From positions 62,001 to 126,000 of the forward strand of contig JAFUFJ010000004.1 of NCBI GenBank assembly GCA_017469955.1: DNA of 64,000 bases, read 5' to 3'. Made by a program: the position numbers and the translations under genes. Under the pieces are notes generated by a model, which saw only the letters and a program-made list of their open reading frames with translations, was not told where the DNA came from and did not search any database. This stretch comes from Prevotella sp. (GTDB lineage Bacteria; Bacteroidota; Bacteroidia; Bacteroidales; Bacteroidaceae). This document shows positions 1 through 61,935 of this stretch, one piece after another. Each line of letters begins with the position of its first letter. Within the stretch, counting starts at the first letter, position 1.

Positions 1-1257
1 GTGGGTTGCGGGCAAGTTATAGCGCAGTCCGATGGTTTGATAGAACCGGCTCTCGTCGATGTCGGCAATGTATCCCATGCGTCTGTATAGGTAAATGCCG
101 GCACTGACAGGCACAGAAAAGTGGCGGAAGAACACCTCATGTCGGGCACCAATGCCAACAACATGGGGTGAGTATCGGTAGCCTTCATGCCCGCCTTCGC
201 GGTCGAACTGGCCGATTCTGTAGGCATAATGGGCGTAGGCGTAGCCCACTTCCAGCCCGCTGGCATGCAGCAAATGGTAGCGAACCATCGGTGCAATGCT
301 CACGAAGGGTGACGCATAGAGGGGAGTCTTGTTGCTGTGGAACGCCTTGAAATGGTCGAGCAAGGTCTTGAACCCGCTCCCTCCAGCCACTTCGAGGTAA
401 GCCTTCCTCCCCTCAAAGGGCTGTCTGGCGCCCGTCGCGGAGGCCTCTTGACAGACAGCTTGCAGGTCATATTGCAGGCCGACAGTAGGCCCTATCGTGT
501 TGATGCCAAGGTTAGGACGGTCGAGAGTGCCGTTGCTGTAGTGCTTGAAGTCGGCTCCAAGTGAGACGCTCCACTGAGGGTTCAGCCGGTAACGGACCAC
601 TACTCCCGCCCCGAAGAAAATCGAAAGACGGGCGCCTATCTGCTCGTTGTCGATGTTGTCGCGCTCGTCAAAGGGGTCGGTGCAATAGGAAACTCCGTTC
701 TGAAGGTCAACTCCCACGGCCAGATTCCCCCGCCTGAAGAAGTCGTATTGCATGCCTCCGTAGAGGGTTATCAGCCTTCCGATGCGCGAATCGTAGGGAG
801 TTGAAGGGCGCGAGAGGTGCACATGAGTGAAATCGGCCACACTGATGCCGGCCTGAAGCATTGGATAGCCCATCGCCCTGTCATAGGGATTGCCGGCAGC
901 AGGCATTGGCTTCCACAGCAGACGGGCATCGAAACAACTCGTTCCATAGCTGTGAAGAATCTCTTTGTTATAGGGACCTTTGGGGATGAGATAGCTCACA
1001 TTTGCCGTAGCTTCGACCGAAAAGACACCCTTCGATGCCTCTTTTTCGCCCCAGACTTCCATGCCTTCACCGGCATCACCGGCAGCTTCCGAATGGAGAA
1101 GCCATCGGATTGAGTCGGGCTCAGACGCCTTTCCTGCCACACACGAAAGCCACGTCAGCAGCAGAACCAGTGCTGTCGTACGGCAGACACAGCGCCACTC
1201 TCCCTCAGAAGAAACGATGTGTGCCGGCCAGAAGAAGAAGCTTTCGTTGTTTGACAT
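1..1257 (-). CDS. PagL-like outer-membrane protein (acyloxyacyl hydrolase family), C-terminus cut by window edge
   Basis: This is a minus-strand gene whose last ~30 codons lie outside the window; 419 codons are visible with no stop. The start at 1257 is the first ATG after an in-frame TAA. A hydrophobic stretch at about residues 28-42 suggests a signal peptide, preceded by an unusually long N-terminal arm. Mid-protein it reads HYSNGTLDRPNLG, the His-x-Ser-Asn motif of PagL-type lipid A deacylases, where His and Ser are catalytic. No Glu is visible at the position expected for the third PagL catalytic residue. It aligns along its whole length with the protein at 55594-56868 (shared SYLIPKG, HSYGTS/HSFGTS, HASGLEV and YQTIGLRY segments). 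A beta-barrel location is inferred; enzyme activity is uncertain. Confidence 0.75.
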   Translation of the reverse strand, partial: MSNNESFFFWPAHIVSSEGEWRCVCRTTALVLLLTWLSCVAGKASEPDSIRWLLHSEAAGDAGEGMEVWGEKEASKGVFSVEATANVSYLIPKGPYNKEILHSYGTSCFDARLLWKPMPAAGNPYDRAMGYPMLQAGISVADFTHVHLSRPSTPYDSRIGRLITLYGGMQYDFFRRGNLAVGVDLQNGVSYCTDPFDERDNIDNEQIGARLSIFFGAGVVVRYRLNPQWSVSLGADFKHYSNGTLDRPNLGINTIGPTVGLQYDLQAVCQEASATGARQPFEGRKAYLEVAGGSGFKTLLDHFKAFHSNKTPLYASPFVSIAPMVRYHLLHASGLEVGYAYAHYAYRIGQFDREGGHEGYRYSPHVVGIGARHEVFFRHFSVPVSAGIYLYRRMGYIADIDESRFYQTIGLRYNLPATH

Positions 1258-1311
1258 AGCCGTCTTTTAAATCTTACAATGTCGTCTTTTGTATTTGACA
1301 TGGTCGCCTTT
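1246..1311 (-). repeat. three 22-bp tandem units overlapping the start codon of the PagL-like gene
   Basis: Read on the minus strand, three consecutive 22-bp units (1290-1311, 1268-1289, 1246-1267) each begin AAAGRCGRC and share ATGTCAAA or a close variant. The last unit contains the ATG at 1257. The core resembles family A units that read AAAGACGATC (see 8437-8458). Confidence 0.7.
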
Positions 1312-1318
1312 AAGAAAA

Positions 1319-1355
1319 TAACTGCCGATGGAGCCTGGCGCTCCACCAGCAGTTA
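1319..1355 (-). terminator. Terminator after the M16 peptidase gene
   Basis: Outer arms TAACTGC/GCAGTTA enclose an inner TGGAGC/GCTCCA pair. On the minus strand the hairpin is followed by a T-rich run (TTTTCTTA), as expected for intrinsic termination of the gene ending at 1402. Confidence 0.75.
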
Positions 1356-1401
1356 TTGCGAGTCTTTCTCCCTGATGTGGGGTCCAGACCAAAGGTTTTT
1401 C

Positions 1402-4224
1402 TTATTCTTCTGTCTCCTCAGGCAGCATGATGACGGTCACCTTGTTGCCAGAATTGAGGAACTCCTTCATGAATTTCTCGATGTCGGCAGGCGTCGTCTC
1501 AGAGACAATCTTCTTATAGTCGGTGTGAGAGTCGATGCCATACTTCTGGAAACGATGGATGATGCCGTTCCAGTACTGGTTGGTCTTGGCACGGTCGTCA
1601 GCCTGCTTGAGCATCACTTCCTTCACCTTTTGCAGCATTTCAGCATCGCAAGCCTCGGCCAAAGCGGGCACCTCGGCATTCATAATATCGATAGCTTCCT
1701 GCTTCTTCTCGGGCTTCATCGGGCAGTATGCCAGCAACACCACTTGATGGAAATCGTCGTCAATGCTGGCCGATCCCTGTGCGCCACATGTGTATGCTGC
1801 GCTGGCTTCCTCACGAATCTTCTTCAGATAAACCATTGAAAGCACCTGTCCGGCTATGTCTGCACAGATTGAATTCTCAAGCGTGTAGGGCATATCGTTA
1901 TTGTGCCAAATCATGTAGGCATTGGCTTTAGGCGTTTCCATCTTACGGGTGAAGATGTTGTCTACTTGTCCTTCAACCATGTTTGTGACACGTTTGCTGT
2001 GCACAACCTTGCCCTTTGCCGGCAGCGAACCGATGTATTGACAGACGAGAGGCTTGATGGAGTCGACGTCGAAGTTGCCCACTATGCGGAAGGTCCAGTC
2101 CTTTACATTGGCTGTACGCTCCTTGGCAATGGCGAGAATGCGGTCGTAGTCCACCTTCTTCAGCAAGTCAACCGTCATAGGAGCGAGGCGATGGTTGTGG
2201 CCATAGAGCGTCGCTGTGAGCGAGTCTGACAAGGCAACTTCGGGAGTAAGGTCGCGGTTCTTCAGCGCAACTTCAAGCTGATTCATCAGGTTGTCATAGG
2301 CTTTCTGGTCTTTATTGATGCCGGTGAAGTAGAGATAGAGCATCTGGAACATCGTCTCCACGTCTTTCGGTGTGGCATTTCCGTCAACACTCATGTACTT
2401 CTGGCCCATGGTCAAGTTGGCGTTTGCTATCTTTCCTGCCAGAGCTTTCTGGAGTTCTGTGCTCGAGAAGTTTGCCAGTCCACTCACACCAATCACGTTG
2501 TCGAAGAGCTGAATGTTGGCATAATCGCCCTCGCCATACAACGATTGTGCGCCAGGACCCTCACCATCAAGTATCACTTGGTCCTTCTTATAATCAGTTG
2601 GTAGGAGCGTAACCTTGGTGCCATTGGAAAGATATAGCTCGGTGTATCCGAACTTTTCATTCTTTATTTCCTTTTTGATCTTGCCTGGTTTCGGCAGCTT
2701 TGCCAGCAAGGGTTCGTCCTTTACGTTGTCGACAAAGGCAGTGATCTCTTCGGCGCGTGCCTCGTTTACGGCCTTGAGCAGTCCCTCTTTCGTGGGATAG
2801 TTGTCGTCGGCCTCGATGTTAAAGGATATGATGACCATGTTGGAGTCGTTCTTTGGCAGGAGTTCAGCCATGATGTTGTTGACGGCTTCGAGTGGCATCA
2901 TGGGCACCATTTGTGTCATTGTCTGGTATCTATAGTCGATGGAAGGCATCGGCTCATTATTGAGAAAATGCTCACGATACTGCACATAGAACTGCTCATT
3001 GAAGCGCTTTTCCTTGTTGGAATATTGTTTTTCAAGCTGACTAAGGTAGTTCTCCTTGTAGCGATCGTACTCAGTCTCGGTGAAACCGAACTCTGCTGCC
3101 TTGCGGGCTTCGATGAGTACTGCCTTTAGAGAGGCTTCTGTGAGGCTCATTTCCTTGGGCATTGCGGAGAGCGTGAAGGCGTCTTTAGTCTTGGCAAAGA
3201 TATAGTTGCCGTAGTCGGCGTCGGCCGATGTGAACGGTGCTTCTGGCTCTTGTGCGGCTTCGCGCAGGCGGTTGTTGAGCATTCCGACGGCTGCGTTGAT
3301 CATGTATTTGGTGAGAAGATAGCCTACGTTGTCTTTCATCTCGTCGGGAATGGGGTCGCTCTTGAACATGATGTCAATGCCGTTGACGGTCATTTCCTTG
3401 TCTTTGTCGATGATGACGATGGGCTCTGCGGTGTCGGGCACGGGCTCATCAACTACAGGAAGGGCGTTTTCGGGGTTCTTGATGTCGGCGAAAAGCTGTT
3501 TGATGACGGCCTCTGTATGGTCGACATCCACATCTCCGACGATGATGAGTCCTTGGTTTGAGGGGTGATACCACTTCTGATAATAGTCGCGAAGCTCCTG
3601 AGGCTTGAAGTTGTCGACCACCTCCATGAGTCCGATAGGATAGCGTACTCCGTATTTAGAGTTAGGATAGAGGGCCGGAAGGTTGCGCTCAAACATGCGG
3701 CTTGAGGCAGAAGTACGCAGACGCCACTCCTCATGTATGACCCCACGTTCTTTGTCTATTTCCTCAGGATCGAGAGAAAGTCCGGTCGACCAGTCGCGAA
3801 GTATGAGCAGGCATGAGTCGAGTGAAGCCTGATTTGTGGTAGGAACGTTGTTGATATTGTACACGGTCTGGTCGATAGAGGTATAGGCATTAAGGTCGCG
3901 ACCGAACTCAACTCCGATCGAACGGAGATACTCAATGAGTCCGTTTCCTTTGAAATTGTCGCTGCCATTGAAGGCCATATGCTCCAGGAAGTGGGCCAGT
4001 CCACGCTGTGACTCCTCTTCTTGTATCGAGCCAACCTTCTGTGCGATGTAGAAGTTTGCACGGTGTTCTGGCCAATTGTTGTGGCGGATGTAGTAGGTCA
4101 ATCCGTTCTCAAGTTTACCGATTCGCACGTCGGGATCGGCGGGAACCGGCGGCATTTGCATCTGCGCCTGGGCCAGAGATGCCACGGCGAGCAGAGCCGT
4201 TACGAATAGATGTCTTAGTCTCAT
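1402..4224 (-). CDS. M16 family zinc peptidase (insulinase/pitrilysin type), secreted
   Basis: The product is 940 residues. A signal peptide occupies about residues 1-20 (LLAVASLAQA). The inverted zinc-binding motif HFLEH is at residues 78-82, with acidic residues about 75 further on (VIHEEW) that would supply the third zinc ligand. The length and second-half repeat fit a double M16 clamshell in one chain, in which the C-terminal half is usually non-catalytic. Role: periplasmic or exported oligopeptide degradation (known for the family; substrate unknown here). It has its own -7 box at 4319-4326 and a terminator at 1319-1355, so it is probably monocistronic. Confidence 0.9.
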   Translation of the reverse strand: MRLRHLFVTALLAVASLAQAQMQMPPVPADPDVRIGKLENGLTYYIRHNNWPEHRANFYIAQKVGSIQEEESQRGLAHFLEHMAFNGSDNFKGNGLIEYLRSIGVEFGRDLNAYTSIDQTVYNINNVPTTNQASLDSCLLILRDWSTGLSLDPEEIDKERGVIHEEWRLRTSASSRMFERNLPALYPNSKYGVRYPIGLMEVVDNFKPQELRDYYQKWYHPSNQGLIIVGDVDVDHTEAVIKQLFADIKNPENALPVVDEPVPDTAEPIVIIDKDKEMTVNGIDIMFKSDPIPDEMKDNVGYLLTKYMINAAVGMLNNRLREAAQEPEAPFTSADADYGNYIFAKTKDAFTLSAMPKEMSLTEASLKAVLIEARKAAEFGFTETEYDRYKENYLSQLEKQYSNKEKRFNEQFYVQYREHFLNNEPMPSIDYRYQTMTQMVPMMPLEAVNNIMAELLPKNDSNMVIISFNIEADDNYPTKEGLLKAVNEARAEEITAFVDNVKDEPLLAKLPKPGKIKKEIKNEKFGYTELYLSNGTKVTLLPTDYKKDQVILDGEGPGAQSLYGEGDYANIQLFDNVIGVSGLANFSSTELQKALAGKIANANLTMGQKYMSVDGNATPKDVETMFQMLYLYFTGINKDQKAYDNLMNQLEVALKNRDLTPEVALSDSLTATLYGHNHRLAPMTVDLLKKVDYDRILAIAKERTANVKDWTFRIVGNFDVDSIKPLVCQYIGSLPAKGKVVHSKRVTNMVEGQVDNIFTRKMETPKANAYMIWHNNDMPYTLENSICADIAGQVLSMVYLKKIREEASAAYTCGAQGSASIDDDFHQVVLLAYCPMKPEKKQEAIDIMNAEVPALAEACDAEMLQKVKEVMLKQADDRAKTNQYWNGIIHRFQKYGIDSHTDYKKIVSETTPADIEKFMKEFLNSGNKVTVIMLPEETEE

Positions 4225-4318
4225 GTCTTGAATGTTTTGTTATTTTGATGTTTCTTTGATGCGTCTGACGGCCTGAAATGCTGTCGTTCCTACACGGAGA
4301 CGACTGACATTGACGGTG

Positions 4319-4326
4319 CAAAGTTA
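4319..4326 (-). promoter_or_regulatory. Bacteroidetes -7 box for the M16 peptidase gene
   Basis: TAACTTTG on the minus strand followed by CA, about 95 bases upstream of the ATG at 4224. Confidence 0.6.
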
Positions 4327-4492
4327 CATTTTATCTGCCGAATATGCAAGAAAAGAAGTTCGCTTTTGTTTGCAGACAGTGCGCAATAGTTGCCCGTCAG
4401 CGGGAGGAAGCGGCCGGAAAACCGCATCGAAGTCAAACATTTTTACCCGAAAATCCTGTCAGAAAAAATGCGCGTTCCAGCTCAAGGAAACG

Positions 4493-4690
4493 CTCTTTGC
4501 TGCCCTTTCACGGCCAGAAGCGTGAGGGTTCATCGCGAGAAAACGGCTCTTTCTGCCCAGGAAACCTAAGCTTTCTGCCGATGAACCCTCAGCATTCTCG
4601 CCGACAACCGGCAGACTTCTCGCCATGAAAGGGCAGACTTCTTGGCTGCAACCCTTAGCTTTCTCGGCAAGAAGGAATGAACGTTTTCGG
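4493..4690. repeat. Family B 22-bp ladder (about nine degenerate units)
   Basis: Consecutive 22-bp units run from 4493 to 4690, the best matching GAACCC-TAGCTTTCTCGGC (for example 4559-4580, 4581-4602, 4647-4668). The array contains nested inverted repeats. GCCCTTTCACGGC (4502-4514) pairs with GCCATGAAAGGGC (4622-4634). TGAGGGTTCATCG (4523-4535) pairs perfectly with CGATGAACCCTCA (4580-4592). The rest of the 800-base spacer (4225-5028) holds the two promoters; I see nothing recognisable in 4713-4930. Confidence 0.75.
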
Positions 4691-4940
4691 AAGAAAACTT
4701 CTAACTCAATGACTGTCATTTGGTTATTAAAATCGTTCATAACTCGAAAATTCCGGACGAAAATATTTCTTCCTCCGAATTTTCCACGCACGTTGCACTG
4801 AAAAAAGGGTGTTTGTCAAGAAAATTCTGCCCACCGACACTATACAGACGGGCACCGTCCGAAACCCGCTTCCATGACCAAACCGCCAGGCTCGGCGAAT
4901 AATCGTGCCGCGTTTTCTTTCCGATTTCAACTTTTATTGC

Positions 4941-4948
4941 TACCTTTG
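4941..4948 (+). promoter_or_regulatory. -7 box for the pfkB-argS genes
   Basis: TACCTTTG followed by CA, 80 bases before the ATG at 5029. Confidence 0.65.
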
Positions 4949-5028
4949 CACCGCAAACAAAAGCCGTCGGCAGCAACTGAAGGCTTCGGAAAACCGCCGG
5001 CAGCAACACCAAACAACCATTGCAACAC

Positions 5029-5910
5029 ATGAAAGATATCTGCTGTGTGGGCCACATCACCCGCGACAGGATTGTGACTCCACGCCAAACAGTCTATATG
5101 TCGGGAGGCACATCCTTCTATTTTGCCTATGCGCTCAACCAGCTTCCAAGGCGTGTTTCGTTCGAACTCGTCACCAAACTGGCCGAGGAAGATATGGCAG
5201 CTGTCAGCCAGATGAGGGACAGAGGCATCGACGTTCGTGTCTATCCAAGCCGTCAAACCGTCTTTTTTGAGAATAAATATGGCGAGAATCAAAACGAGCG
5301 AACTCAGCGGGTTTTGGCAAAAGCCGACCCGTTTGAGATCAGCGAAATGAGCGAGGTCGACGCCCGAATCTACCATCTTGGCACCCTCTTGGCCGACGAC
5401 TTCTCAAAGGATGTCGTCAGGTTTCTTTCCACCAAAGGCCGTATTTCAATCGATGCGCAAGGCTACCTGCGGGCCGTCGACGGCGAGAAAGTCAACGCAG
5501 TAGACTGGCAAGACAAGCTCGAGATACTCGCCTATACCGACATCATCAAGGTGAACGAACACGAAATGAAGGTCATCACAGGCAGCAATGATCCCTATGA
5601 AGCAGCACGAAAGTTGGCCGGATGGGGCGTGAAAGAGGTCGTCGTAACACTCGGAAGCGAGGGATCAATCATACTTGCCAACGGCCATTTCTATGACATT
5701 CCTGCCTATCGACCCAAAGAAATCGTCGACGCAACAGGCTGCGGCGACACCTATGCAGCAGGCTATCTATACTGTCGTTCACAAGGAATCAGCTTCGCAG
5801 AAGCAGGCCGTTTCGCCGCCGCCATGTGCACTTTAAAACTCGAACACAGCGGACCCTTCGACCGAACCATCGCCGAAGTAGAGCAGCTGGCTGCCTCTGA
5901 CAACCCATAG
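5029..5910 (+). CDS. PfkB family carbohydrate/nucleoside kinase
   Basis: The product is 293 residues, of ribokinase (PfkB) type. The N-terminal strand carries CCVGHITRD, and MSGGTSFYFA corresponds to the family's GG substrate motif. Near the C-terminus is the anion-hole signature DATGCGDTYAAGY with the likely catalytic base D240. The ATG at 5029 is preferred over an in-frame TTG at 5020. It phosphorylates a sugar or nucleoside with ATP in the cytoplasm; the substrate cannot be told from the sequence. The gene follows the promoter at 4941 and lies 56 bases before argS, with which it is probably co-transcribed. Confidence 0.85.
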   Translation: MKDICCVGHITRDRIVTPRQTVYMSGGTSFYFAYALNQLPRRVSFELVTKLAEEDMAAVSQMRDRGIDVRVYPSRQTVFFENKYGENQNERTQRVLAKADPFEISEMSEVDARIYHLGTLLADDFSKDVVRFLSTKGRISIDAQGYLRAVDGEKVNAVDWQDKLEILAYTDIIKVNEHEMKVITGSNDPYEAARKLAGWGVKEVVVTLGSEGSIILANGHFYDIPAYRPKEIVDATGCGDTYAAGYLYCRSQGISFAEAGRFAAAMCTLKLEHSGPFDRTIAEVEQLAASDNP

Positions 5911-5966
5911 AAACACCCCCTCAACTCATATCTCCATCAGAAAATCCTTTTAACCTCCAACAGAAC

Positions 5967-7808: not shown

Positions 7809-7884
7809 CAACCCGTCCAAGGCCTGAAGCGGACGGCTCGCGACACTGTTTCGCCTGCCGGATGCCGGCATTTCACCAAGAAAC

Positions 7885-8349
7885 ATGAACTTACAGAATC
7901 CTCCTGACTATCGCAACGACACCGTCTTGCCACTGCACATGGACGTAAAGGCCAAGGCATGGGCCGTCGATGCGGCCTGCTCGGGCAACCCGGGTCCGAT
8001 GGAATACCAAGCCATCGACCTGCAAACGGGCGCCCAGGTGTTCCACTACGGGCCGGTATACGGCACTAACAACATCGGCGAGTTCCTCGCCATCGTGCAT
8101 GCACTGGCCCTGATGGAGCAGAAAGGCATCCATGACAGGACCATCTACAGCGACTCATACAATGCCATCCTGTGGGTGAAGAAGAAGCAGTGCAAGACTA
8201 AACTCGAACGCAACCCGCAGACAGAAGCCCTCTATCAGGTCATCCGACGGGCCGAAAACTGGCTGCGAACGCATGCCGTCACCACGCCTATCCTCAAGTG
8301 GGAGACCTCGAAGTGGGGCGAGATACCGGCTGACTTCGGCCGTAAATAA
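7885..8349 (+). CDS. Ribonuclease H family protein (RNase HI fold)
   Basis: The product is 154 residues. RNase H active-site carboxylates are visible in order: D29 (VDAACSGNPGP), E66 (NNIGEFLAI), D90 (YSDSYNA) and D150 near the C-terminus (GEIPADFGRK). All four metal ligands are therefore present, and it should cleave RNA in RNA:DNA hybrids. A start at M19 is possible because the first 20 residues are poorly conserved-looking. It lies 76 bases after argS and ahead of a strong hairpin terminator, so it is probably the last gene of that unit. Confidence 0.85.
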   Translation: MNLQNPPDYRNDTVLPLHMDVKAKAWAVDAACSGNPGPMEYQAIDLQTGAQVFHYGPVYGTNNIGEFLAIVHALALMEQKGIHDRTIYSDSYNAILWVKKKQCKTKLERNPQTEALYQVIRRAENWLRTHAVTTPILKWETSKWGEIPADFGRK

Positions 8350-8373
8350 CAGAGAAGACGATGATTTTACCAT

Positions 8374-8409
8374 AAGAAAGCTTTCACTCGCCAAGGTGAA
8401 AGCTTTCTT
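8374..8409 (+). terminator. Intrinsic terminator after the RNase H gene
   Basis: A 14-bp stem AAGAAAGCTTTCAC / GTGAAAGCTTTCTT with an 8-base loop, followed by GTTTTG. It lies between convergent genes and could act on both strands. Confidence 0.85.
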
Positions 8410-8414
8410 GTTTT

Positions 8415-8524
8415 GTGGAGAAACGGTGCCTTTCCGGGAGTGAAAGACGATCTTTTATGCGACAATAGATGATGTTTTGCGAGGCAATAGATCATCTTTT
8501 GCGAGGCAATAGATGATGTTTTGC
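8415..8524. repeat. Family A 22-bp ladder between convergent genes
   Basis: Five abutting 22-bp units: 8415-8436 and 8437-8458 (degenerate), then 8459-8480, 8481-8502 and 8503-8524. The last three share GGCAATAGATSATSTTTTGC. The core is a near-perfect palindrome, GCAAAAGAT-N-ATCTTTTGC. Confidence 0.9.
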
Positions 8525-8586
8525 ATGCAGAATCCGTTGGGTCGCGGACAAAAGAGCAAAGCCTTCAGGGCTTTCTTCGGCAGACA

Positions 8587-46256: not shown

Positions 46257-46363
46257 CAAAATTATTGTCAGTCTGCAGCATTTTCAAAGGCAAAAAATCG
46301 AAGAACGCACTGACAGACTGCCCTCAAACCGATGCTTCCTTGACAAGAAAGGGCAGCTGTAGT

Positions 46364-46495: not shown

Positions 46496-46536
46496 TCGAA
46501 TTTTACAGCTCGTACAGATTAATCTTCCTACCTTTG
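46474..46536 (+). promoter_or_regulatory. GH2 promoter with the element shared with GH38
   Basis: TACCTTTG at 46529-46536 is the -7 box. The 35 bases from 46474 match 27 of 35 positions of 18960-18994 without a gap, and the element-to-box distance (55 bases) is identical. Confidence 0.7.
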
Positions 46537-46619
46537 CACGCAAATCTTCCAAAGCCCCCACTCCTGCAACCGCGGGCTTTGGGAAAATCTATTCTGACGA
46601 CCATCAAGAACAACAGATA

Positions 46620-49295: not shown

Positions 49296-49297
49296 GC

Positions 49298-49363
49298 AGA
49301 ACCCTATCGTCCAACCTGAAAAAACCTATCCGTTCTTACCGAGAATCATACCCATCATCCCGA
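49298..49363. repeat. Possible family B ladder between GH2 and GH78
   Basis: Three units in 22-bp register (49298, 49320, 49342) starting AGAACCCTAT, AAAAACCTAT and AGAATCATAC. They are weak matches to the B core and could be coincidental. Confidence 0.4.
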
Positions 49364-49368
49364 CAACT

Positions 49369-51927
49369 ATGAGGAAAGTATTCGCATTTCTGCTGCTTCT
49401 CAGCCCGTCTTTGCTGACGGCTCATGTCATTGACCTTCGCTGTGAAGACCGTGTTTCGCCCCTCGGCATCGACACCACCGAGCCGCATTTCAGCTGGAAG
49501 AACACGCTTGACCACAACGGACAGCTGCAAAAGTCCTATGAAATTCAGGTCGCTTCCGACAGCATCCTGTTGGCAACAGGCAAGGCAGACTTATGGAAAA
49601 GCGGAAAAGTGAAGTCGCAAGACCAGGTGATGGTGCCCTATCAAGGCCTGCCTCTGAAAGAGAAGCAGCTGTGCTATTGGAGGGTTCGCACGTGGGATGA
49701 GCACGGACGCCGTTCTAAATGGAGCGCTGTCGCACGCTTTGCCGTGGGCATTCTCAGCGAGATGAAGGGCGAATACATCGGAAGTGTCACCGAGAAGTCG
49801 GAAGAAAAGGCCTTCGACGTCACTCCGATGTTCCGCAAAACCTTGCGGCTAAGTCCCCGCTTCACCACCTTTGCCCATGTCAACTCGCTCGGCTATCATG
49901 AGCTTTACGTCAACGGAAGGCGTGTGGGCAATACGGTATTGCAGCCTGCGATGTCGCAGCTCGACCAGCATTCGCTCATCGTTACCTATGACATCACCCC
50001 CTATTTGCATGACGGAGACAACGAGATCATTATCTGGACTGGGCAAGGATGGTATAAGAAACAGAACTTCAATGCCCAGTATGACGGCCCGTTAGTGAAA
50101 GCAGAGTTCGACCAATTGGTGAGCGGTCAGTGGCAGACCATTGCCCAAACCGACGGTAGTTGGCAAGCACTCTCGAGCGGATACACCTACACTGGCACGT
50201 GGTATCCCTTACAGTTCGGAGGCGAAAAGGTGGACGGTCTGAGCGAAATGCCAAAGAACCGAGACCGGCTTCCGTGGCATTCAGCCTCGACTTTTGTCGT
50301 TGAAAATATGCATGCCACACCCCAGCTTTTCGACGGAAACCGCATCATCGACCGCCTGAATCCACAGACCATCACACCTTCCGACGGCTCCATCCTTGTC
50401 GATTTCGGACGGGTTGTGACGGGCTGGCTGCAGGTGGATTTCGACGATCTCGCAGCCGGACAGGAGGTGTTGATGGAATATACCGACTACATTCCCGCCG
50501 GTTCAGCCTTTGAAAGCCAGGGAGAGTCGGACGTCTACGTGGCAAAAGGCACGGGCAAAGAGACCTTCCGCAACCGATTCCACCATCATGCCTTCCGCTA
50601 TGTGCGCATCAACACTGCCCACGTCAGGAAGGCTACGGCCCTGCAAATCAGCGGTCTGTCGCCGCGAGAGGCTTCTGCTTTCGCCTGCGACGACAAGTCG
50701 TTGAATGCTGTTCACGACATGATCCACTACACGATGCAATGCCTTACGTTCAGCGGCTATATGGTAGACTGCCCGCATCTCGAACGAATGGGCTACGGAG
50801 GCGACGGCAATTCGTCGACGATGACGCTGCAAACCATGTATAATGTCTCGCCCACCTACATGAACTGGCTATCGGCTTGGGGCGACACCATGGACGAAGA
50901 CGGCTCACTTCCGCATGTGGCGCCGGCCGGAGGGGGTGGAGGTGGGCCCTATTGGTGTGGCTTTATCGTGAAAGCTCCCTGGCGAACCTACCTCAACTAC
51001 GGCGACAATCGGCTGCTAAAACGTCACTATGGCCAGATGAAACTGTGGCTTTCCTACGTGAGAAAGTATATGAAAAACGACCTGCTTCATCCGTGGCCTG
51101 ACACCAAGAACCGCATGTGGTTTCTCGGCGACTGGCTGGCTCCAAACGGCATAGACGTGGGCGGTGAGTCGGTGATTCATGCCAACAACTGTTTTATCAG
51201 CGACTGTTTGGCCAACATGACCGCCATTGCCACGCAGCTTGGTCACGACGATGATGCCCGATACTATGCCTCATGGCGCGAGACTCTCAACAGAGCTATC
51301 CACGAGAAGTTCTACCATCCTGCCACAGAAACCTATGCCAACGGCACCCCGCTCGACCAGGCTTATGCACTGCTTGCAGGCGTTCCGACCGACGCAACCC
51401 TCAGCAAGAAGGTGGAGCAACGGCTCGTCAGCGACTCATATGGGCGGTATAACACCCACATTGCTGCCGGTCTCTTCGGCGTTCCTGTCTTCACCGAATG
51501 GGCCATCCGAAGCCGACAAGCCAACCTCATGGCTGCGATCTTACGTCAAAAAGACTATCCCGGCTACCTGTATATGATCGAGAATGGTGCCACAACAACG
51601 TGGGAATACTGGAACGGAGAGCGCAGCCGTGTGCACAACTGTTATAACGGAATAGGCACTTGGTTCTACCAGGCAATGGCCGGCATTCGTCCCGACTACG
51701 ATGCTCCGGGCTACCGACACTTCTTCATCGACCCGCAACCTGTCGAGGGCATCACCCATGTAGAAGCCTCTAAACCGACGCCTTACGGCACTATCCGCAT
51801 CGAGAAAAACGGACGTGAAGTGCGCGTAGTCATCCCCGTAGGCACCACGGCGACGGCCTTCCCGAGCACCGCTTATGAGCAGGTTCTGCCTGCCGGAGAG
51901 CACACGCTCGTCAGCCCTGAGGAGTAG
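49369..51927 (+). CDS. GH78 alpha-L-rhamnosidase
   Basis: The 852-residue product has a signal peptide (about 1-18). Fibronectin-like and jelly-roll N-terminal domains (VSPLGIDTTEPHFSWK, YWRVRTWDEHGRRSKWS) precede the (alpha/alpha)6 catalytic domain. Its acid motif DCPHLERMGYGGDG places the likely general acid at E472, and GATTTWEYWNGE supplies the base. A Gly-rich loop (GGGGGGPYW) lies between them. It releases terminal alpha-L-rhamnose from pectic or plant glycosides. It probably shares the GH2 transcript. Confidence 0.93.
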   Translation: MRKVFAFLLLLSPSLLTAHVIDLRCEDRVSPLGIDTTEPHFSWKNTLDHNGQLQKSYEIQVASDSILLATGKADLWKSGKVKSQDQVMVPYQGLPLKEKQLCYWRVRTWDEHGRRSKWSAVARFAVGILSEMKGEYIGSVTEKSEEKAFDVTPMFRKTLRLSPRFTTFAHVNSLGYHELYVNGRRVGNTVLQPAMSQLDQHSLIVTYDITPYLHDGDNEIIIWTGQGWYKKQNFNAQYDGPLVKAEFDQLVSGQWQTIAQTDGSWQALSSGYTYTGTWYPLQFGGEKVDGLSEMPKNRDRLPWHSASTFVVENMHATPQLFDGNRIIDRLNPQTITPSDGSILVDFGRVVTGWLQVDFDDLAAGQEVLMEYTDYIPAGSAFESQGESDVYVAKGTGKETFRNRFHHHAFRYVRINTAHVRKATALQISGLSPREASAFACDDKSLNAVHDMIHYTMQCLTFSGYMVDCPHLERMGYGGDGNSSTMTLQTMYNVSPTYMNWLSAWGDTMDEDGSLPHVAPAGGGGGGPYWCGFIVKAPWRTYLNYGDNRLLKRHYGQMKLWLSYVRKYMKNDLLHPWPDTKNRMWFLGDWLAPNGIDVGGESVIHANNCFISDCLANMTAIATQLGHDDDARYYASWRETLNRAIHEKFYHPATETYANGTPLDQAYALLAGVPTDATLSKKVEQRLVSDSYGRYNTHIAAGLFGVPVFTEWAIRSRQANLMAAILRQKDYPGYLYMIENGATTTWEYWNGERSRVHNCYNGIGTWFYQAMAGIRPDYDAPGYRHFFIDPQPVEGITHVEASKPTPYGTIRIEKNGREVRVVIPVGTTATAFPSTAYEQVLPAGEHTLVSPEE

Positions 51928-51962
51928 CATTTGCATGCTTTCCAGAGAAAATACTGTAAAAA

Positions 51963-52018
51963 TTCTTGCCTGTTTTTAACACTTCCCGACGTAAAAAAGA
52001 GTTGAAAACAGGCAAGAA
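51963..52018 (-). terminator. Stem-loop terminator, best oriented for the RluA-type gene
   Basis: A 14-bp stem TTCTTGCCTGTTTT / AAAACAGGCAAGAA around a ~28-base loop. On the minus strand it is followed by TTTTTACAG. It may also stop GH78 transcripts. Confidence 0.65.
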
Positions 52019-52057
52019 AACAACCCTTCAATCGGTCAACCCATCCACTTACAATCG

Positions 52058-52189
52058 ACAAAAATCGCCCATTTCATCGAGAAAGCTATCCTTTCTTGCG
52101 CACAGTTCTGCCCATTGACGGCAAGAAGGCTATGGCTTCATCGCGAGAACCCTTAGCTTTCTGACTGAGAAGGGATAGCTTTCTTGGAA
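52058..52189. repeat. Family B 22-bp ladder between convergent genes
   Basis: Six units from 52058, best at 52080 (AGAAAGCTATCCTTTCTTG), 52124, 52146 (AGAACCCTTAGCTTTCTG) and 52168 (AGAAGGGATAGCTTTCTTGG). The unit at 52080 pairs with that at 52168 over 16 of 17 positions, closing the array as a hairpin. Confidence 0.85.
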
Positions 52190-52223
52190 ACGGCGCTTCA
52201 AAAACAACGTGTCAAACATCATC

Positions 52224-52262
52224 CTTTTCTTTCATAAACGACATAAATCATTGAAAGAAAAG
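52224..52262. repeat. 11-bp perfect inverted repeat
   Basis: CTTTTCTTTCA (52224-52234) and TGAAAGAAAAG (52252-52262) flank 17 bases. The role is unknown. A small TTTTCC-GTC-GGAAAA hairpin lies at 52381-52395. I see nothing else between 52190 and 52436. Confidence 0.6.
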
Positions 52263-52436
52263 CAGTTGCCGGTTCTGTAATTACTTACTTCGAAATGTGT
52301 CAGCCATCATCACTTATCGGGAGAAAAAGCACCAAGGCCGTGGGGTTTGTCCTGCTTTTTCCAAGTTTTTAACATTTGATTTTCCGTCGGAAAACATGCT
52401 TTCTAAAGGAAGAGCCTGTCGCCTTTGCCCCAGATT

Positions 52437-54047
52437 TCAGAACGGTGCGGGCCGCGAAAACGAGAGACGCTCGCCGGAAACAGGATGGACGAAGCTGATT
52501 TCCTCGGCATGCAGATAGAGCCTGTCGGCCTTTTTACCGTAGAGAGGGTCGCCCATGATGGGGATTCCTAGTCCCTCTTTGTGGGCACAATGCACCCGAA
52601 GCTGGTGGGTTCGGCCTGTCTCCGGCCAGAGCAAGACGCTCCTTTCGCCGGTCAGTTCATAGCGTGTCACGGCTGTTTTGCCCCGCTCGCGGTCGACAAT
52701 CTGGCGTGGTCTGTCAAGGATGTCGGGCCGAAGAGGCAGGTTGACGGTGCCCTTTTCGCCCGTCCTTCGGTGGGGTTCAGCAAGTAAAGCCACATATTTC
52801 TTCTGCACGACACGGTCGGAAAACTGCCGCTGCAGCAAGCGATGCACACGGCGAGTCTTGGCAACGACCATCAGCCCCGACGTGTGCATGTCGAGCCGAT
52901 GTACCATGAGCGGGCCGTCGGCCTCAGGAAACAGCTCGCGAACGATGGTGGCCACCGAGCGTTTCTCGCGCTTTCCCGGCACACTGAGCATGCCTGCGGG
53001 CTTGGCAACAACGGCCAGAAAGTCGTCTGACCACACCACTTCAAGACCGACTTCGTCCCGCTTTTCGTGCATGTCGACGGCCAAGTCGCTGCTGAGCATC
53101 CACTGAAGTATCGGACGACACTTGCCCGTGCAGGCCGGATAGCACTGCATGTGGTGGCGTATTTCGTCGCCAGGCGAGGCACCATACCAGAACATCGCCA
53201 TCTGAAGAGGTTGCAAGTGATGGGCGAAGGCATACTGAAGCAGCTTGGGTTCGCAGCACTCGCCGGCACCAGCAGGGGGCATTCCCTGCGGCATGTCTTT
53301 GAAAATATCGAGTAAACTGCGACGCTCGCCCTTGCCATTGAGCATCTCAAACTGGAGGAAGAGCCACTGCTGCAGGGCATCAGAGCGCTGCCGGCGCTGC
53401 TGTTTCAGGCTGGCAATGGCCGACTCTTGGCGCTCAACAACATCGCGAAGCGGAGCCATCTTCTCGCGCCAGAGCAGCTTTGTGCGGTGCAGCTCTGCTT
53501 TCTGATACTGGCTTTCGCGCACCATCTGCTGCTGTTCGGCCGACGAAAGAAAGCCTTCTTTGCGCCGTTCGTCGCGCAGGCACTTGCCCATTCTCATCGT
53601 ATATGCAGCCTCGTCAATGGCTATTCCGGCCTCCTTCTCAAGCTGCCGGAGTTTCTCTCGCGCCTGAAGAAACGAGGCTTCTGCCGACAAACGCTCCACC
53701 TCCTGATTGAGAAGGCTGATGCCGGCCTCTTCCTTCTTGAAGTATCCTTCGGGTGACAGGTAGTCGAACACGGGCGGAACAAAGCCCTCCCAGTCGTTGC
53801 GGTCGGCTATTTGTCCCGAATAGGCCACAAGGTAGAAGAGCTCGCCGCCGGCCTTTGAGGAAGTGTCGGCTACGACAAGCACGCCGAACATCTTCCCCTC
53901 GACGCTGTGCTCCATGAGCCTTCCGACCATGGGAAGGGCTTCTTCAATGGCAGCCTTGCAAGCCGGATGGAGCTCGTAGTCCATCGGATTGTTCATCAAC
54001 CGTGGCCGGGGCACGGGAGTTCTGAGAGGATGCAGTATCTCGTTCAT
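52437..54047 (-). CDS. RluA-family pseudouridine synthase with long N-terminal domain
   Basis: The 536-residue product has the RluA catalytic motif HRLDMHTSG with Asp386, preceded by VVAKPAGMLSVPG and followed by ETGRTHQLRVHCA. The first ~330 residues are an extra domain (GKMFGVLVV, FVPPVFDYLSPEGYFKKEE, a Gln/Arg/Glu-rich coiled coil at ~130-220). I believe this domain is common in Bacteroidetes members of the family. The ATG at 54047 (MNEILHPLRTPVP) is chosen over the longer frame from 54194 because a -7 box lies at 54141-54148. It converts uridine to pseudouridine in rRNA or tRNA; the target site is unknown. Confidence 0.87.
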   Translation of the reverse strand: MNEILHPLRTPVPRPRLMNNPMDYELHPACKAAIEEALPMVGRLMEHSVEGKMFGVLVVADTSSKAGGELFYLVAYSGQIADRNDWEGFVPPVFDYLSPEGYFKKEEAGISLLNQEVERLSAEASFLQAREKLRQLEKEAGIAIDEAAYTMRMGKCLRDERRKEGFLSSAEQQQMVRESQYQKAELHRTKLLWREKMAPLRDVVERQESAIASLKQQRRQRSDALQQWLFLQFEMLNGKGERRSLLDIFKDMPQGMPPAGAGECCEPKLLQYAFAHHLQPLQMAMFWYGASPGDEIRHHMQCYPACTGKCRPILQWMLSSDLAVDMHEKRDEVGLEVVWSDDFLAVVAKPAGMLSVPGKREKRSVATIVRELFPEADGPLMVHRLDMHTSGLMVVAKTRRVHRLLQRQFSDRVVQKKYVALLAEPHRRTGEKGTVNLPLRPDILDRPRQIVDRERGKTAVTRYELTGERSVLLWPETGRTHQLRVHCAHKEGLGIPIMGDPLYGKKADRLYLHAEEISFVHPVSGERLSFSRPAPF

Positions 54048-54140
54048 CGTGTGGGCGACAGTGATAAGCCGCAGATCATCGGCCGACTGCTGTCTTTCCT
54101 GAAGATAAAGCCATGCCGGCACGGCCGTCTGTCGTGGCTG

Positions 54141-54148
54141 CAAAAATA
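54141..54148 (-). promoter_or_regulatory. -7 box of the RluA-type gene
   Basis: TATTTTTG on the minus strand followed by CAGCC, 93 bases before the ATG at 54047. Confidence 0.55.
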
Positions 54149-54234
54149 AGAAAAAACGACCACTTGGCACAGGAAAACTTCCAGTTTTTCTCAAAAAAGC
54201 GAAAAATCTTTTTCCCTAATTCGCTTCTTTGTCG

Positions 54235-54242
54235 TATCTTTG
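54235..54242 (+). promoter_or_regulatory. -7 box of the YitT gene
   Basis: TATCTTTG followed by CACG, 26 bases before the ATG at 54269. It diverges from the RluA promoter. Confidence 0.65.
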
Positions 54243-54268
54243 CACGCCAAACAACGAAAGGTAAAGAA

Positions 54269-55165
54269 ATGGAAATGGAGCAAATCAGCCGTTCGGCTAT
54301 GTTTAAAGAGATACGCGACTATGCATTCATAGCCGTGGCGATGCTGTTCTATTGTATCGGCTGGACGGTATTTCTCTTGCCCAACGACATCGCGACGGGC
54401 GGCGTTCCTGGCGTGTCGTCGGTGCTTTATTGGGGACTGGGCATACCTGTGCAGTGGAGCTACTTCGTCATCAATGCCGTATTGATGGTGTTTGCCTTGC
54501 GCATTCTGGGTCGTAAGTTCTGCCTGAAGACCATCTTTGCCATCGTCGTGCTGACCACTTTGATATCGGTAGTCAGCGAGTTGACCGCCGGAACGGTGCT
54601 GCTTCGCGACCAGCCTTTTATGGCAGCTGTGCTTGGAGCATGCTTTTGTGGCACGGGAGTAGGGCTCGGTCTGTCGGTTGGAGGGTCGACAGGCGGAACA
54701 GATATCATTGCAGCCATCGTCAACAAGTATCACGACATCTCGCTCGGACGCGTGATATTAATATGCGATGTCATCATCATCTCGTCGAGCTTCTTCGTGC
54801 TTCACAGCTGGGAGAAGGTCATCTATGGCTACGTAGTGCTCTATATCACGGCTTTTTGTGTTGACCAAGTGGTGAATACCCGTCGGCAATCGGTGCAGTT
54901 TTTCATCATCACCGACAAGTATGAAGAGATCGGACATCGCATTAATCTCGACCCCCACCGGGGCTGTACGGTCATCAACGGCCAGGGCTTCTACAGCGGA
55001 AGAGAGGTGAAGATGCTCTTCGTGCTGGCAAAAAAGTCGGAGAGTGCGCGCATCTTTGAGATCATCAATGAGATCGATCCGGCAGCCTTCGTGTCGCAAA
55101 GTGCCGTGATCGGCGTCTACGGAGAGGGCTTCGACCGCTTTAAAGTGAGACGCCACAAGGCCTGA
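54269..55165 (+). CDS. YitT family membrane protein
   Basis: The 298-residue product has five or six membrane segments in the first ~205 residues (LPNDIATGGVPGVSSVLYW; GTGVGLGLSVGGSTGGTDIIA are YitT hallmarks). A C-terminal DUF2179 soluble domain follows (GHRINLDPHRGCTVINGQGFYSG; INEIDPAAFVSQSAVIGVYGEGF). The family is widespread, and its transport or sensing function is not established. The start at 54269 is used because the -7 box is 26 bases upstream; a longer frame begins within the RluA promoter. Confidence 0.9.
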   Translation: MEMEQISRSAMFKEIRDYAFIAVAMLFYCIGWTVFLLPNDIATGGVPGVSSVLYWGLGIPVQWSYFVINAVLMVFALRILGRKFCLKTIFAIVVLTTLISVVSELTAGTVLLRDQPFMAAVLGACFCGTGVGLGLSVGGSTGGTDIIAAIVNKYHDISLGRVILICDVIIISSSFFVLHSWEKVIYGYVVLYITAFCVDQVVNTRRQSVQFFIITDKYEEIGHRINLDPHRGCTVINGQGFYSGREVKMLFVLAKKSESARIFEIINEIDPAAFVSQSAVIGVYGEGFDRFKVRRHKA

Positions 55166-55268
55166 CTTCCACTGTTTTCCTGCAAGAAGAGGCCGTCTGG
55201 CAACGGCCAAGCGATGCCGGCAAGAAAGAAAACGCTCAGGAAAACCATCCGCACTCCTTATTTCTATT

Positions 55269-55422
55269 ACACACAACGCTGCCCTTTCCGGCAGTGAAAG
55301 ATCATGTTTTGCCCAGTAAAAGATCATGTTTTGCAGGGCAATAGATCATGTTTTGCCCGATGAAAGACAACACTTCTCCTCGTAGAAAGGCTGGAAACTC
55401 CCGATGAAATGGGGCATTTTTG
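55269..55422. repeat. Family A 22-bp ladder upstream of the second PagL-like gene
   Basis: Units from 55269: degenerate 55269-55290 (AACGCTGCCCTTTCCG, matching the first unit of the array at 8415). Then 55291, 55313 and 55335, each with RATCATGTTTTGC, and degenerate 55357, 55379 and 55401. The -7 box of the next gene lies 80-120 bases further on. Nothing recognisable in 55166-55268 apart from a small GGCCGT/ACGGCC hairpin. Confidence 0.85.
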
Positions 55423-61934: not shown

Positions 61935-61935
61935 T

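What the first reader, a model, noticed from the sequence alone, without database searches (positions are those of the whole stretch)
1246..55422. Intergenic ladders of degenerate repeats with a universal 22-bp unit
At least a dozen spacers carry arrays of 2 to 9 abutting units, and in every one I measured the period is exactly 22 bp: 1246, 4493, 8415, 10790, 14959, 18819, 18938, 25222, 28886, 31406, 40009, 41906, 46364, 52058 and 55269. The core sequence differs (families A, B, C and two minor ones), but the period does not, and one ladder can mix cores (18819, 10790). 22 bp is not a codon multiple, and units are not separated by spacers. Two helical turns per unit would place each core on the same DNA face, suggesting a multimeric DNA-binding protein, a polymerising nucleoid factor, or a replication-slippage element with a fixed template length. 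I know of no named family with this behaviour.
Basis: seen in the sequence. Interest (0 to 1): 0.85.

Follow-up and report, generated by a model that had tools for sequence, protein, structure and literature searches.

The report
Genome-wide 11-base rhythm with repeat ladders
Many gaps between genes in this Prevotella-type genome hold ladders of mirror-image 22-letter repeats, and these ladders sit in step with an 11-letter rhythm of A/T-rich and G/C-rich DNA that runs through the genes themselves for thousands of letters, as if the chromosome were held along one face of its helix.

Summary
In detail: 14 of the 15 listed sites have period 22 (18938 does not). Each unit is a 19-bp odd palindrome plus a 3-bp linker, so half-sites alternate every 11 bp. 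Three cores (A, B, C) dominate. Ladders are discrete: core B has five units in 62 of 81 arrays, length changes are rare, and near-identical arrays sit in unrelated spacers. Other Prevotella, and other genera of the family, carry period-22 ladders with different cores; the other families sampled do not.

The larger finding: the ladders lie in register with a chromosome-wide A/T comb of period 11.022 bp, phase-coherent over about 2 kb and running through genes. From coding DNA 150-1200 bp away, the dyad phase of 123 of 137 ladders is predicted to a quarter cycle. Third codon positions swing from 27% to 61% A+T with phase. Permuting synonymous codons removes about 90% of the coding signal. A 150-kb E. 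coli sample shows none of this.

Best reading: rotational-register signals for DNA held along one face by a nucleoid protein or filament. No protein was identified. Some relatives have ladders without a detectable comb.

The parts
1250..1311 (.). Minor-core 22-bp ladder, about 2.8 units
   Evidence: TRF period 22; lag 22 ranks first of lags 15-40, 29/44 matches, 0 of 300 shuffles
4559..4665 (-). Core-B ladder, 5 units (GAGAA...TTCTC dyads)
8440..8524 (.). Core-A ladder, 4 units in register, the last three strong; between convergent genes RNase H and DsbD
10794..10856 (-). Core-C ladder, 3 units, flanked on one side by a core-B-like unit
15028..15112 (.). Core-A ladder, 4 units, upstream of tRNA-Met(CAT) at 15208-15282
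18842..18904 (+). Core-C ladder, 3 units, preceded by a core-B-like unit; overlaps the listed ORF start of the GH38 gene (ATG 18898)
25224..25308 (.). Core-C ladder, 4 units
28907..29013 (-). Core-B ladder, 5 units
31453..31515 (+). Core-A ladder, 3 units, between convergent genes CotH and GH43
40008..40114 (-). Core-B ladder, 5 units; 0.90 identical to another copy (L191:15462) whose 40-bp flanks are only 0.30 identical
41905..41971 (.). Minor-core 22-bp ladder (GTTCCCAATGnAAGC...), about 2.9 units
   Evidence: TRF period 22; lag 22 match 37/44
46367..46473 (.). Core-A ladder, 5 units, between divergent genes
52123..52185 (.). Core-B ladder, 3 scoring units, between convergent genes
55294..55356 (-). 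Core-A ladder, 3 units
1..63000 (.). 11.02-bp A/T comb through genes and spacers
   Evidence: 21 of 21 3-kb bins have comb amplitude 0.077-0.132 against a 99th-percentile background of 0.029-0.040. Third codon positions of the GH115 gene (11003-14926) swing between 0.16 and 0.64 A+T when folded at 11.022 bp; six genes were tried, clear in four, weak in two

Best explanation
Shown: the 22-bp ladders are dispersed intergenic elements made of dyad units with half-sites every 11 bp. In this genome their dyads fall on the G/C-rich phase of an A/T comb of period 11.022 bp that continues, phase-coherent, through coding DNA for kilobases and is written mainly in synonymous codon choice. Inferred: the comb is a rotational-register signal. 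AA/TT recurs on one face of the helix at each turn, so that DNA with about 11.02 bp per turn in the cell is held or wrapped along one face by an abundant nucleoid protein or filament, without losing register across genes. The ladders are its strongest sites: dyad-symmetric docking or anchor arrays in spacers, where no codon limits the sequence. Their core sequence is species-specific because the reading protein's base contacts evolve and because whole arrays are copied between spacers, while the geometry (11/22 bp, dyads, G/C at the dyads, few length changes) is kept by selection.
For: Geometry: odd dyads in 84 of 84 own-genome arrays that pass the dyad test (98 tested), 14 of 16 in other genus members (35 tested), 17 of 20 in named relatives (35 tested). 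G/C lies at the dyads in 82/82, 17/17, 17/21 and 7/7 dyad-passing arrays of four groups. Length: in 167 places found by gap-tolerant profiles (built from gap-free arrays, gap priors raised), 13,299 columns and 2,862 substitutions, 6 alignments contain a gap and 3 change length. Register: the dyad phase predicted from coding bases 150-1200 bp away has R=0.90 at pi in each family; A 30/33, B 67/75, C 26/29 lie within a quarter cycle; random spacer points give R=0.08, n=302. G016 gives 9 of 11 (R=0.85), named loci with a comb 6 of 8 (R=0.73). Comb: A/T autocorrelation peaks at 11.02 bp at lags 330-700 (x79 the median), 1000-2000 (x128) and 2000-5000 (x77); coding-only gives x64, x103 and x65. Synonymous permutation cuts the coding signal at lags 200-600 from 0.00215 to 0.00022. 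Codon position 3 A+T is 0.614 in phase against 0.272 opposite; AA and TT are in phase, GC, GG, CC and CG out of phase. The one own 20-kb stretch of 40 without A/B/C arrays, L187, has no third-position modulation, is below background in 4 of its 6 3-kb bins and holds a relaxase and a ResIII/methylase pair. Against RNA roles: no orientation bias significant at 5%, T-runs depleted.
Against: No protein was identified and no binding was tested. Ladders occur without a detectable long-range comb: G024 (lag 22 z=5.5; no comb), and other genera of the family (12 of 131 spacers), where dyads are not in register (n=9, R=0.15). In G010, which has a comb, 0 of 4 arrays were in register (R=0.17); G004 gave 2 of 4, and named loci without a clear comb 4 of 15. 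So ladders do not strictly depend on the comb. Three unrelated cores in one genome would need three reading specificities or purely shape-based reading. Comb modulation is weaker in spacers (0.70/0.49) than at third codon positions (0.61/0.27), which is not what a spacer-centred signal predicts. Facing arms avoid complementarity in the own genome, which the model does not explain.
Confidence: 0.48

Rival explanations
1. Mutational imprint: the chromosome is continuously wrapped or supercoiled in a sequence-set register, and mutation or repair differs between the inner and outer face of the helix, so an A/T comb accumulates at weakly constrained sites without being selected. Ladders are then sequences that happen to fit or set the register.
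For: Codon position 3 is modulated most and positions 1 and 2 less, as expected for a pressure filtered by protein constraint. A probable mobile island lacks most of the comb, as expected for DNA that has not had time to acquire it.
Against: Ladders are discrete elements with strong base-level conservation at some positions, near-identical copies in unrelated spacers and very few length changes, which a mutational imprint does not give. PMC7537859 (passages and one section read) argues that genomic periodicity rises with codon selection and so is selected.
Confidence: 0.2
2. DNA gyrase platforms, like BIME-2 of E. coli: the ladders are wrapping sites for gyrase, placed to absorb transcription-driven supercoils.
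For: E. coli gyrase sites share a symmetric ~130-bp motif with periodic GC% (10.75 bp) thought to be read by shape, and BIME-2 palindromes are enriched for gyrase cleavage (PMC6379681, section 23 and passages). Arrays are commoner between convergent genes (35 of 58 spacers >=150 bp) than divergent ones (22 of 61; Fisher P=0.010). GC% outside the core arrays is periodic, best fits 10.5-10.9 bp over short zones.
Against: The genome-wide period is 11.022, not 10.75. The periodic pattern runs for kilobases, far beyond a 130-bp footprint. Gyrase is a conserved enzyme (general knowledge), so species-specific cores and dyads every 11 bp are not expected from it.
Confidence: 0.13
3. Selfish dispersed palindromes (REP-, REPIN- or MITE-like) mobilised by a transposase; the register reflects survival of in-phase insertions only.
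For: 72 pairs of five-unit core-B arrays are >=0.84 identical with flanks at 0.26-0.38 and a sharp step at the array ends, involving 38 of 62 arrays; 53 pairs exceed the 99.9th percentile of a column-shuffled null where 1.9 are expected. Unit number is narrow. 27 of 40 relatives searched have a Y1 transposase match, among them G010, G016, G004 and G006, which have period-22 signal.
Against: No Y1 (RAYT-type) match in the own assembly (75.6% complete), nor in G003 and G012 (99% complete), which show period-22 signal (z 2.8 and 4.1). No target-site duplication for lengths 3-7. Neutral copies should collect indels; very few are seen.
Confidence: 0.12
4. RNA-level elements: hairpins, terminators or mRNA-stabilising structures formed by transcribed ladders.
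For: Units are palindromic and the strands can fold. 11 bp is also the A-form RNA helical repeat (recalled).
Against: Facing arms are less complementary than chance (e.g. core B L3-R3 z=-6.2), and no mirrored-arm pair covaries positively beyond z=1.5. T5 runs downstream are depleted, 11 of 290 against 548 of 4,636. No orientation bias relative to genes significant at 5%. In the window no Rfam family but tRNA reaches its gathering score.
Confidence: 0.03
5. Minisatellites made by replication slippage with a fixed 22-nt template.
For: Tandem units at a constant period.
Against: Narrow unit numbers with position-specific consensus, register with flanking coding DNA, and ladders mixing cores at one fixed period (also L206).
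Confidence: 0.03

Closest known systems
~10-11-bp genomic (A-tract) periodicity of prokaryotic chromosomes (PMC7537859: passages and one section; PMC3431218, PMC3940949, PMC4132750: passages)
   Same: An ~11-bp period, AA/TT in phase, present in coding DNA. Some chromosomes show it persistently. PMC7537859 reports an E. coli period of 11.066 bp, with periodicity extending at least 1 kb; PMC4132750 reports third codon positions as its preferred carrier.
   Different: Much stronger here: third-position A+T goes from 27% to 61% with a phase predicted from flanking DNA 40-900 bp away, while 150 kb of E. coli gave 0.456 against 0.439. Locking to discrete dyad ladders is not mentioned in the passages read.
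REP / BIME / REPIN elements (PMC3733652 and PMC2817692: search listings only; PMC6379681: passages)
   Same: Many intergenic palindromic repeats per genome in compound arrays, possible gyrase link.
   Different: Strict 22-bp period, three unrelated cores with the same geometry, no RAYT found in this assembly, no GTAG or CGTC tag at the core ends by inspection, register with coding DNA.
BrickBuilt MITE of Porphyromonas gingivalis (PMC4596501: abstract and passages)
   Same: Intergenic, abutting tandem units of nearly the same length (23 nt); P. gingivalis belongs to the same order (recalled).
   Different: 23 not 22 nt; 19 copies in strain ATCC 33277 with leader and tail ends. Here no leader or tail was seen, cores differ between genomes, and the 22-bp peak is missing from the other-family sample (2 of 91 spacers).
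PINSR, 188-bp intergenic repeat of the Prevotella intermedia/nigrescens group (PMC4755523: one section and passages)
   Same: 177-184 intergenic copies per genome, no terminal inverted repeats, lineage-specific, absent from most conjugative and mobilisable transposons.
   Different: Not described as a 22-bp ladder. Its consensus was not readable here, so whether PINSR is such a ladder is open; 188 bp is close to 8.5 units. The one P. disiens locus held shows a 22-bp array and a comb of 10.92 bp.
E. coli DNA gyrase motif (PMC6379681: section 23 and passages)
   Same: Symmetric GC% periodicity thought to be read by DNA shape.
   Different: 130 bp and 10.75 bp, against kilobases and 11.022 bp here.

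Membership tests
~11-bp genomic periodicity | Excess of like-nucleotide spacings at multiples of ~11 bp, genome-wide | tested here: met
   Period 11.022 bp in 864 kb of the own genome; 39 of 40 20-kb stretches; 254 of 261 3-kb bins
~11-bp genomic periodicity | Carried by third codon positions, not by protein repeats | tested here: met
   Synonymous permutation removes about 90% of the coding signal, leaving a residue above background (0.00022 against 0.00003); codon position 3 modulated most
REP/RAYT (REPIN) | RAYT (Y1) transposase encoded in the genome | tested here: inconclusive
   0 matches in the own assembly, but it is 75.6% complete; 0 also in G003 and G012 (99% complete) with period-22 signal; matches in G010, G016, G004, G006
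REP/RAYT (REPIN) | GTAG or CGTC tag at one end of the palindrome (definition from the PMC3733652 search listing) | tested here: not met
   By inspection: core ends are GCAA, GAGA and CATA
MITE | Terminal inverted repeats | tested here: inconclusive
   Core-B ends are inverted (GAGAAAGCT...AGCTTTCTC), but every internal unit is also a dyad
MITE | Target-site duplication | tested here: not met
   No length from 3 to 7 exceeds the null among 62 core-B arrays; length 8 stopped the script and 9 was not reached
BrickBuilt | 23-nt unit with leader and tail | tested here: not met
   Unit 22 for A, B and C; no shared leader or tail, flank identity 0.26-0.38
Intrinsic terminator | Hairpin followed by a T-run | tested here: not met
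   T5 runs in 11 of 290 downstream flanks against 548 of 4,636 background
Structured RNA | Compensatory covariation of paired arms | tested here: not met
   Mirrored arms: highest z 1.5; facing arms anti-complementary
PINSR | Match to the 188-bp consensus | not testable with these tools
   The consensus is in a figure that is not held
Gyrase strong site | Gyrase binding or cleavage at the element | not testable with these tools
   Needs cleavage mapping; only GC% periodicity compared

The most novel reading that the evidence does not exclude
Some Prevotella chromosomes carry a kilobase-coherent helical-register code: across most genes the synonymous codons are chosen by which face of the DNA helix they lie on, and dyad ladders in the spacers are the matching anchor sites of a chromosome-coating protein filament with an 11.02-bp repeat. 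This would be a bacterial counterpart of rotational nucleosome positioning, but continuous rather than particle by particle.
Probability: 0.35. Interest if true: 0.95.

Novelty: new variant of a known kind. Interest (0 to 1): 0.85.

Why it matters
The role of ~11-bp periodicity in bacterial genomes is unsettled, and in E. coli the signal is faint (about 2 percent variation in spacing abundance, PMC7537859 passage). Here it is strong enough to predict third-position A+T from flanking DNA up to 900 bp away, it has discrete matching elements, and it is largely missing from a probable mobile island in the same genome. That makes the question directly testable: which protein or topology reads the register, and whether it is selected or a mutational imprint. 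It would also mean that codon choice in these bacteria is set in large part by chromosome structure.

Tried and rejected
RNA hairpins: within-unit and mirrored-arm covariation was tested; facing arms avoid complementarity and mirrored arms do not covary positively.

Long palindrome: an axis test suggested each array is one long inverted repeat. I withdrew this, because an array's centre always has most half-sites on both sides, so the test is confounded.

RAYT, target-site duplications, terminators and orientation bias: all negative or inconclusive.

Orthologous spacers: what lies downstream of argS-RNase H differs between the named loci (RNase H near argS in 68 loci printed), so position-by-position comparison of spacers was not possible. 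Lag 21 in pooled relatives is inflated by 7-bp repeats and leftover coding DNA; it was re-tested after dropping spacers with 7-bp repeats.

Block shuffles as a control: 99-bp blocks leave a residue at 11 bp (0.00009, x19), as expected because 99 is 9 x 11; 100-bp blocks cut it to 0.00002, still 3-4 times their background.

Phase of the comb at argS in seven sequences: no single phase; four of seven lie at 0.51-0.64 pi at the gene start. Too few to use.

Literature: ten searches returned no description of 22-bp dyad ladders in Bacteroidaceae in the listings seen. The library holds only open-licence papers, so this is weak evidence of absence.

HU-family genes (6 matches in the own genome) were listed as candidates and not pursued.
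Full report
SOURCE. Its arginyl-tRNA synthetase is at best about 80% identical to those of named Prevotella genomes, so I call it Prevotella-type. Genes were called here as long open reading frames, not with a trained gene finder. 'Genus', 'family' and 'order' follow the kinship labels of the search tool.

OBSERVATION. At 14 of the 15 listed sites lag 22 is the best of lags 15-40, and 0 (13 sites) or 1 (one site) of 300 shuffles reached it; 18938 fails. Over 464 kb of the same genome (window plus 20 stretches), lag 22 in 210 spacers stands about 30 sd above the median, with peaks also at 44, 66, 88 and 110; coding DNA shows only a small rise at lag 22, 0.2545 against about 0.245. 77 of 210 spacers pass an array threshold against a mean of 0.6 in shuffles.

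ANATOMY. Three cores account for 12 of the 14 confirmed window ladders: A GCAAWASATnATSTWTTGC, B GAGAAnnCTWAGnnTTCTC and C CATACATCTnAGATGTATG (approximate consensus), each followed by a variable 3-bp linker. All are imperfect palindromes centred on a base pair, so half-sites alternate in direction every 11 bp. Hits to the symmetrised weight matrices are separated only by 22, 44 or 66 bp up to a distance of 80: 197 pairs at 22, none at other spacings. In 864 kb (window plus 40 stretches, 38% of the assembly) there are 35 A, 81 B and 29 C arrays of two or more units. Unit number is narrow: A has three units in 27 of 35, B five in 62 of 81, C three in 15 and four in 13 of 29. Units have position-specific consensus, and A and C ladders tend to be flanked by degenerate B-like units in the same register.

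CONSTRAINT AND COPYING. A gap-tolerant profile search (profiles built from gap-free arrays, gap priors raised) found 167 places, 13,299 aligned columns and 2,862 substitutions. Six alignments held any gap and three a net length change. Pairwise identity of five-unit B arrays averages 0.73; 53 of 1,891 pairs exceed the 99.9th percentile of a column-shuffled null, 1.9 expected. 72 pairs reach 0.84 or more, involving 38 of 62 arrays, and in those pairs the flanks fall to 0.26-0.38 with a sharp step at the array ends. So whole arrays appear to be copied between spacers, by transposition or gene conversion. No target-site duplication of length 3-7 was seen.

NOT RNA. Facing arms within a unit, and across a linker, are less complementary than chance in families A and B (core B L3-R3 z=-6.2, L4-R4 -4.5, L2-R2 -3.9); in C the adjacent arms show no clear effect. 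Mirrored arms do not covary positively (highest z 1.5). T5 runs are depleted downstream (11 of 290 against 548 of 4,636). Orientation shows no significant bias in co-directional spacers (B 12 same, 19 opposite; A 10 and 3, P=0.09; C 3 and 2). Arrays are commoner in convergent (35 of 58) than divergent (22 of 61) spacers of 150 bp or more, P=0.010; co-directional 53 of 105. In the window only a tRNA reaches an Rfam gathering score. An earlier test that suggested long hairpins is confounded and is withdrawn.

SPREAD. Spacers of 70 bp or more with at least 26 of 44 self-matches at lag 22, after dropping 7-bp repeats: own genome 98 of 331 (40 stretches, window not included); other genus members 32 of 294; 80 named loci 38 of 497; other genera of the family 12 of 131; other families of the order 2 of 91. 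Lag 22 was the commonest of lags 13-40 in the first four groups. Cores differ between species. Of 60 genomes, core A is far above its control only in the own genome and G010, and modestly in G006. Nine of 398 genus genomes, the own one included, have any tandem match to a loose core-B pattern (that pattern has the 22-bp period built in, so it is no evidence for the period). Dyads pass in 84 of 98, 16 of 35, 20 of 35 and 6 of 11 arrays of the four groups. The axis lies on a base in 115 of 120 passing Prevotella arrays, but between bases in 5 of 6 from other genera. One feature is shared across different cores: G/C at the dyads and A/T midway, in 82/82, 17/17, 17/21 and 7/7 dyad-passing arrays.

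THE COMB. Around ladders the intergenic A/T signal at 11.0 bp keeps a nearly constant phase out to 330 bp; coding bases show a signal of similar size, whose phase was not printed, and the random-centre control was run for intergenic bases only. This led to a genome-wide test. A/T autocorrelation of 864 kb peaks at 11.02 bp at lags 330-700 (79 times the median background), 1000-2000 (128 times) and 2000-5000 (77 times). Coding DNA alone gives 64, 103 and 65 times; base-shuffled DNA gives 2-3 times and no 11.02 peak. The period is 11.022 bp, and the amplitude falls smoothly, at first by about half per 1.2 kb. 100-bp block shuffles cut the power at lags 2000-5000 to 0.00002, against 0.00032. Permuting synonymous codons within 433 genes, proteins unchanged, cuts the coding signal at lags 200-600 from 0.00215 to 0.00022, still above the 0.00003 background. 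With the phase predicted from DNA 40-900 bp away, third codon positions are 61.4% A+T in phase and 27.2% in the opposite phase; position 1 is 52.7 and 41.6, position 2 is 65.3 and 58.7, spacers 70.2 and 49.1. AA and TT follow the A/T phase; GC, GG, CC and CG oppose it. In the window, folding at a single fixed period shows it directly: the GH115 gene (11003-14926) runs from 0.16 to 0.64 A+T at third positions; six genes were tried, clear in four and weak in two.

LADDERS ARE IN REGISTER. Predicting the phase at each ladder's dyad only from coding bases 150-1200 bp away puts 30 of 33 A, 67 of 75 B and 26 of 29 C ladders (three or more units) within a quarter cycle of the G/C phase (R=0.90 in each family). 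Random spacer points give R=0.08 (n=302). The two flanks agree in phase across arrays (R=0.63, n=123), across array-free spacers (0.57, n=104) and across mid-gene points (0.53, n=35), so ladders follow the comb rather than set it locally.

WHO HAS THE COMB. 39 of 40 own 20-kb stretches pass, and 254 of 261 own 3-kb bins. Of stretches from other genus members 15 of 39 pass, 9 of them from G016 (9 of 9); 14 of 78 named loci, 2 of 19 other-genus and 2 of 14 other-family stretches pass; a decoy period band gives 5 of 150, so the weaker calls are uncertain. Strong named cases are Hoylesella buccalis (L129), H. marshii (L156), Prevotella disiens (L146, at 10.92 bp) and L134. Loci with a comb also have a stronger spacer lag-22 signal (median z 3.13, n=33, against 1.30, n=116; P=4e-6). 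150 kb of E. coli K-12 shows no long-range coherence by this method, although PMC7537859 reports from the whole genome a weak periodicity reaching at least 1 kb. A probable mobile island in the own genome (L187: N6/N4 methylase, ResIII, KAP NTPase, Schlafen-type AlbA_2 protein, relaxase; a tRNA at 17572-17653) is below background in 4 of 6 3-kb bins, the first two bins being just above it (1.04 and 1.18), has no third-position modulation (0.590 against 0.594) and no A/B/C arrays.

RESULTS AGAINST A SIMPLE STORY. G024 has period-22 signal (z=5.5) but no comb. Register test elsewhere: G016 9 of 11 (R=0.85), named loci with a comb 6 of 8 (R=0.73), G004 2 of 4, G010 0 of 4 although G010 has a comb, other named loci 4 of 15 (R=0.30), other genera 2 of 9 (R=0.15). 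Ladders may therefore be the older, family-wide feature, and the coherent comb an elaboration in some lineages. Spacers are less modulated than third codon positions. No protein has been named.

MECHANISM, GRADED. Shown by sequence: dyad ladders, fixed geometry, near-identical copies, comb, register, synonymous encoding. Inferred: selection for rotational register, a protein or filament holding one face of the DNA, ladders as its anchor sites, species-specific cores through co-evolution and copying. Period 11.02 fits the common view that ~11 bp reflects the pitch of negatively supercoiled DNA (PMC4132750, abstract passage), so supercoiling alone could set the pitch. The main rivals are a mutational imprint on DNA held in register, and gyrase platforms like BIME-2 (PMC6379681, section 23: 130-bp motif, 10.75 bp).

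NOVELTY. The comb is an extreme case of a known phenomenon. The ladders, and their locking to synonymous codon choice in neighbouring genes, were not found in the ten literature searches made. I call it a new variant of a known kind, with a bolder reading left open.

Noticed in passing
L187:1-18000 (G000:C6:260001-278000): Probable mobile island: N6/N4 methylase, ResIII, KAP NTPase, Schlafen AlbA_2 protein, MobA-type relaxase, tRNA at 17572-17653. It lacks ladders and most of the comb, so register could serve as a marker for acquired DNA.
   Followed up: partly
L193:1-6000 and L046:1-3000: Further own-genome bins without the comb at contig starts, nature unknown.
   Followed up: partly
L146 (Prevotella disiens): Comb with a different period, about 10.92 bp (third positions 0.760 against 0.478), so the pitch may differ between species.
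   Followed up: partly
L206:4729 (unnamed other genus, G065): Ladder with outer units of one core, three inner units of another, then outer units again, at one fixed 22-bp period.
   Followed up: no
L220 (unnamed other genus, G092): Two different 22-bp cores within 20 kb.
   Followed up: no
G000:C19:7368-7926: Two neighbouring HU-family matches, one in a 477-aa open frame; HU family has 6 matches in this assembly.
   Followed up: no
L035:11907 and L035:15419: Two core-B ladders 3.5 kb apart, 0.94 identical, sharing also the left 40-bp flank (0.85): a recent local duplication.
   Followed up: partly
argS in window, L129, L134, L156, L133: Comb phase at the argS start is similar in four named loci (0.51-0.64 pi) but not in the window, L146 or L086; register might be inherited in part.
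   Followed up: partly
Spacers of several Prevotella loci: Many spacers with self-match at lag 14 or 21 (23 each of 531), largely lost when 7-bp repeats are dropped; they inflate lag 21 in pooled data.
   Followed up: partly
L075, L076, L170-L175 (G024): Strong lag 64-65 signal in spacers, possibly a CRISPR array; not examined.
   Followed up: no
window 18842-18904: Core-C ladder overlaps the listed ORF start of the GH38 gene (ATG 18898); the true start is probably further downstream.
   Followed up: no
Own genome, A and B arrays: Facing half-sites avoid being perfect complements (core B GT-GT 1 observed, 14.2 expected; GT-CC 43 against 17.7). Unexplained.
   Followed up: partly
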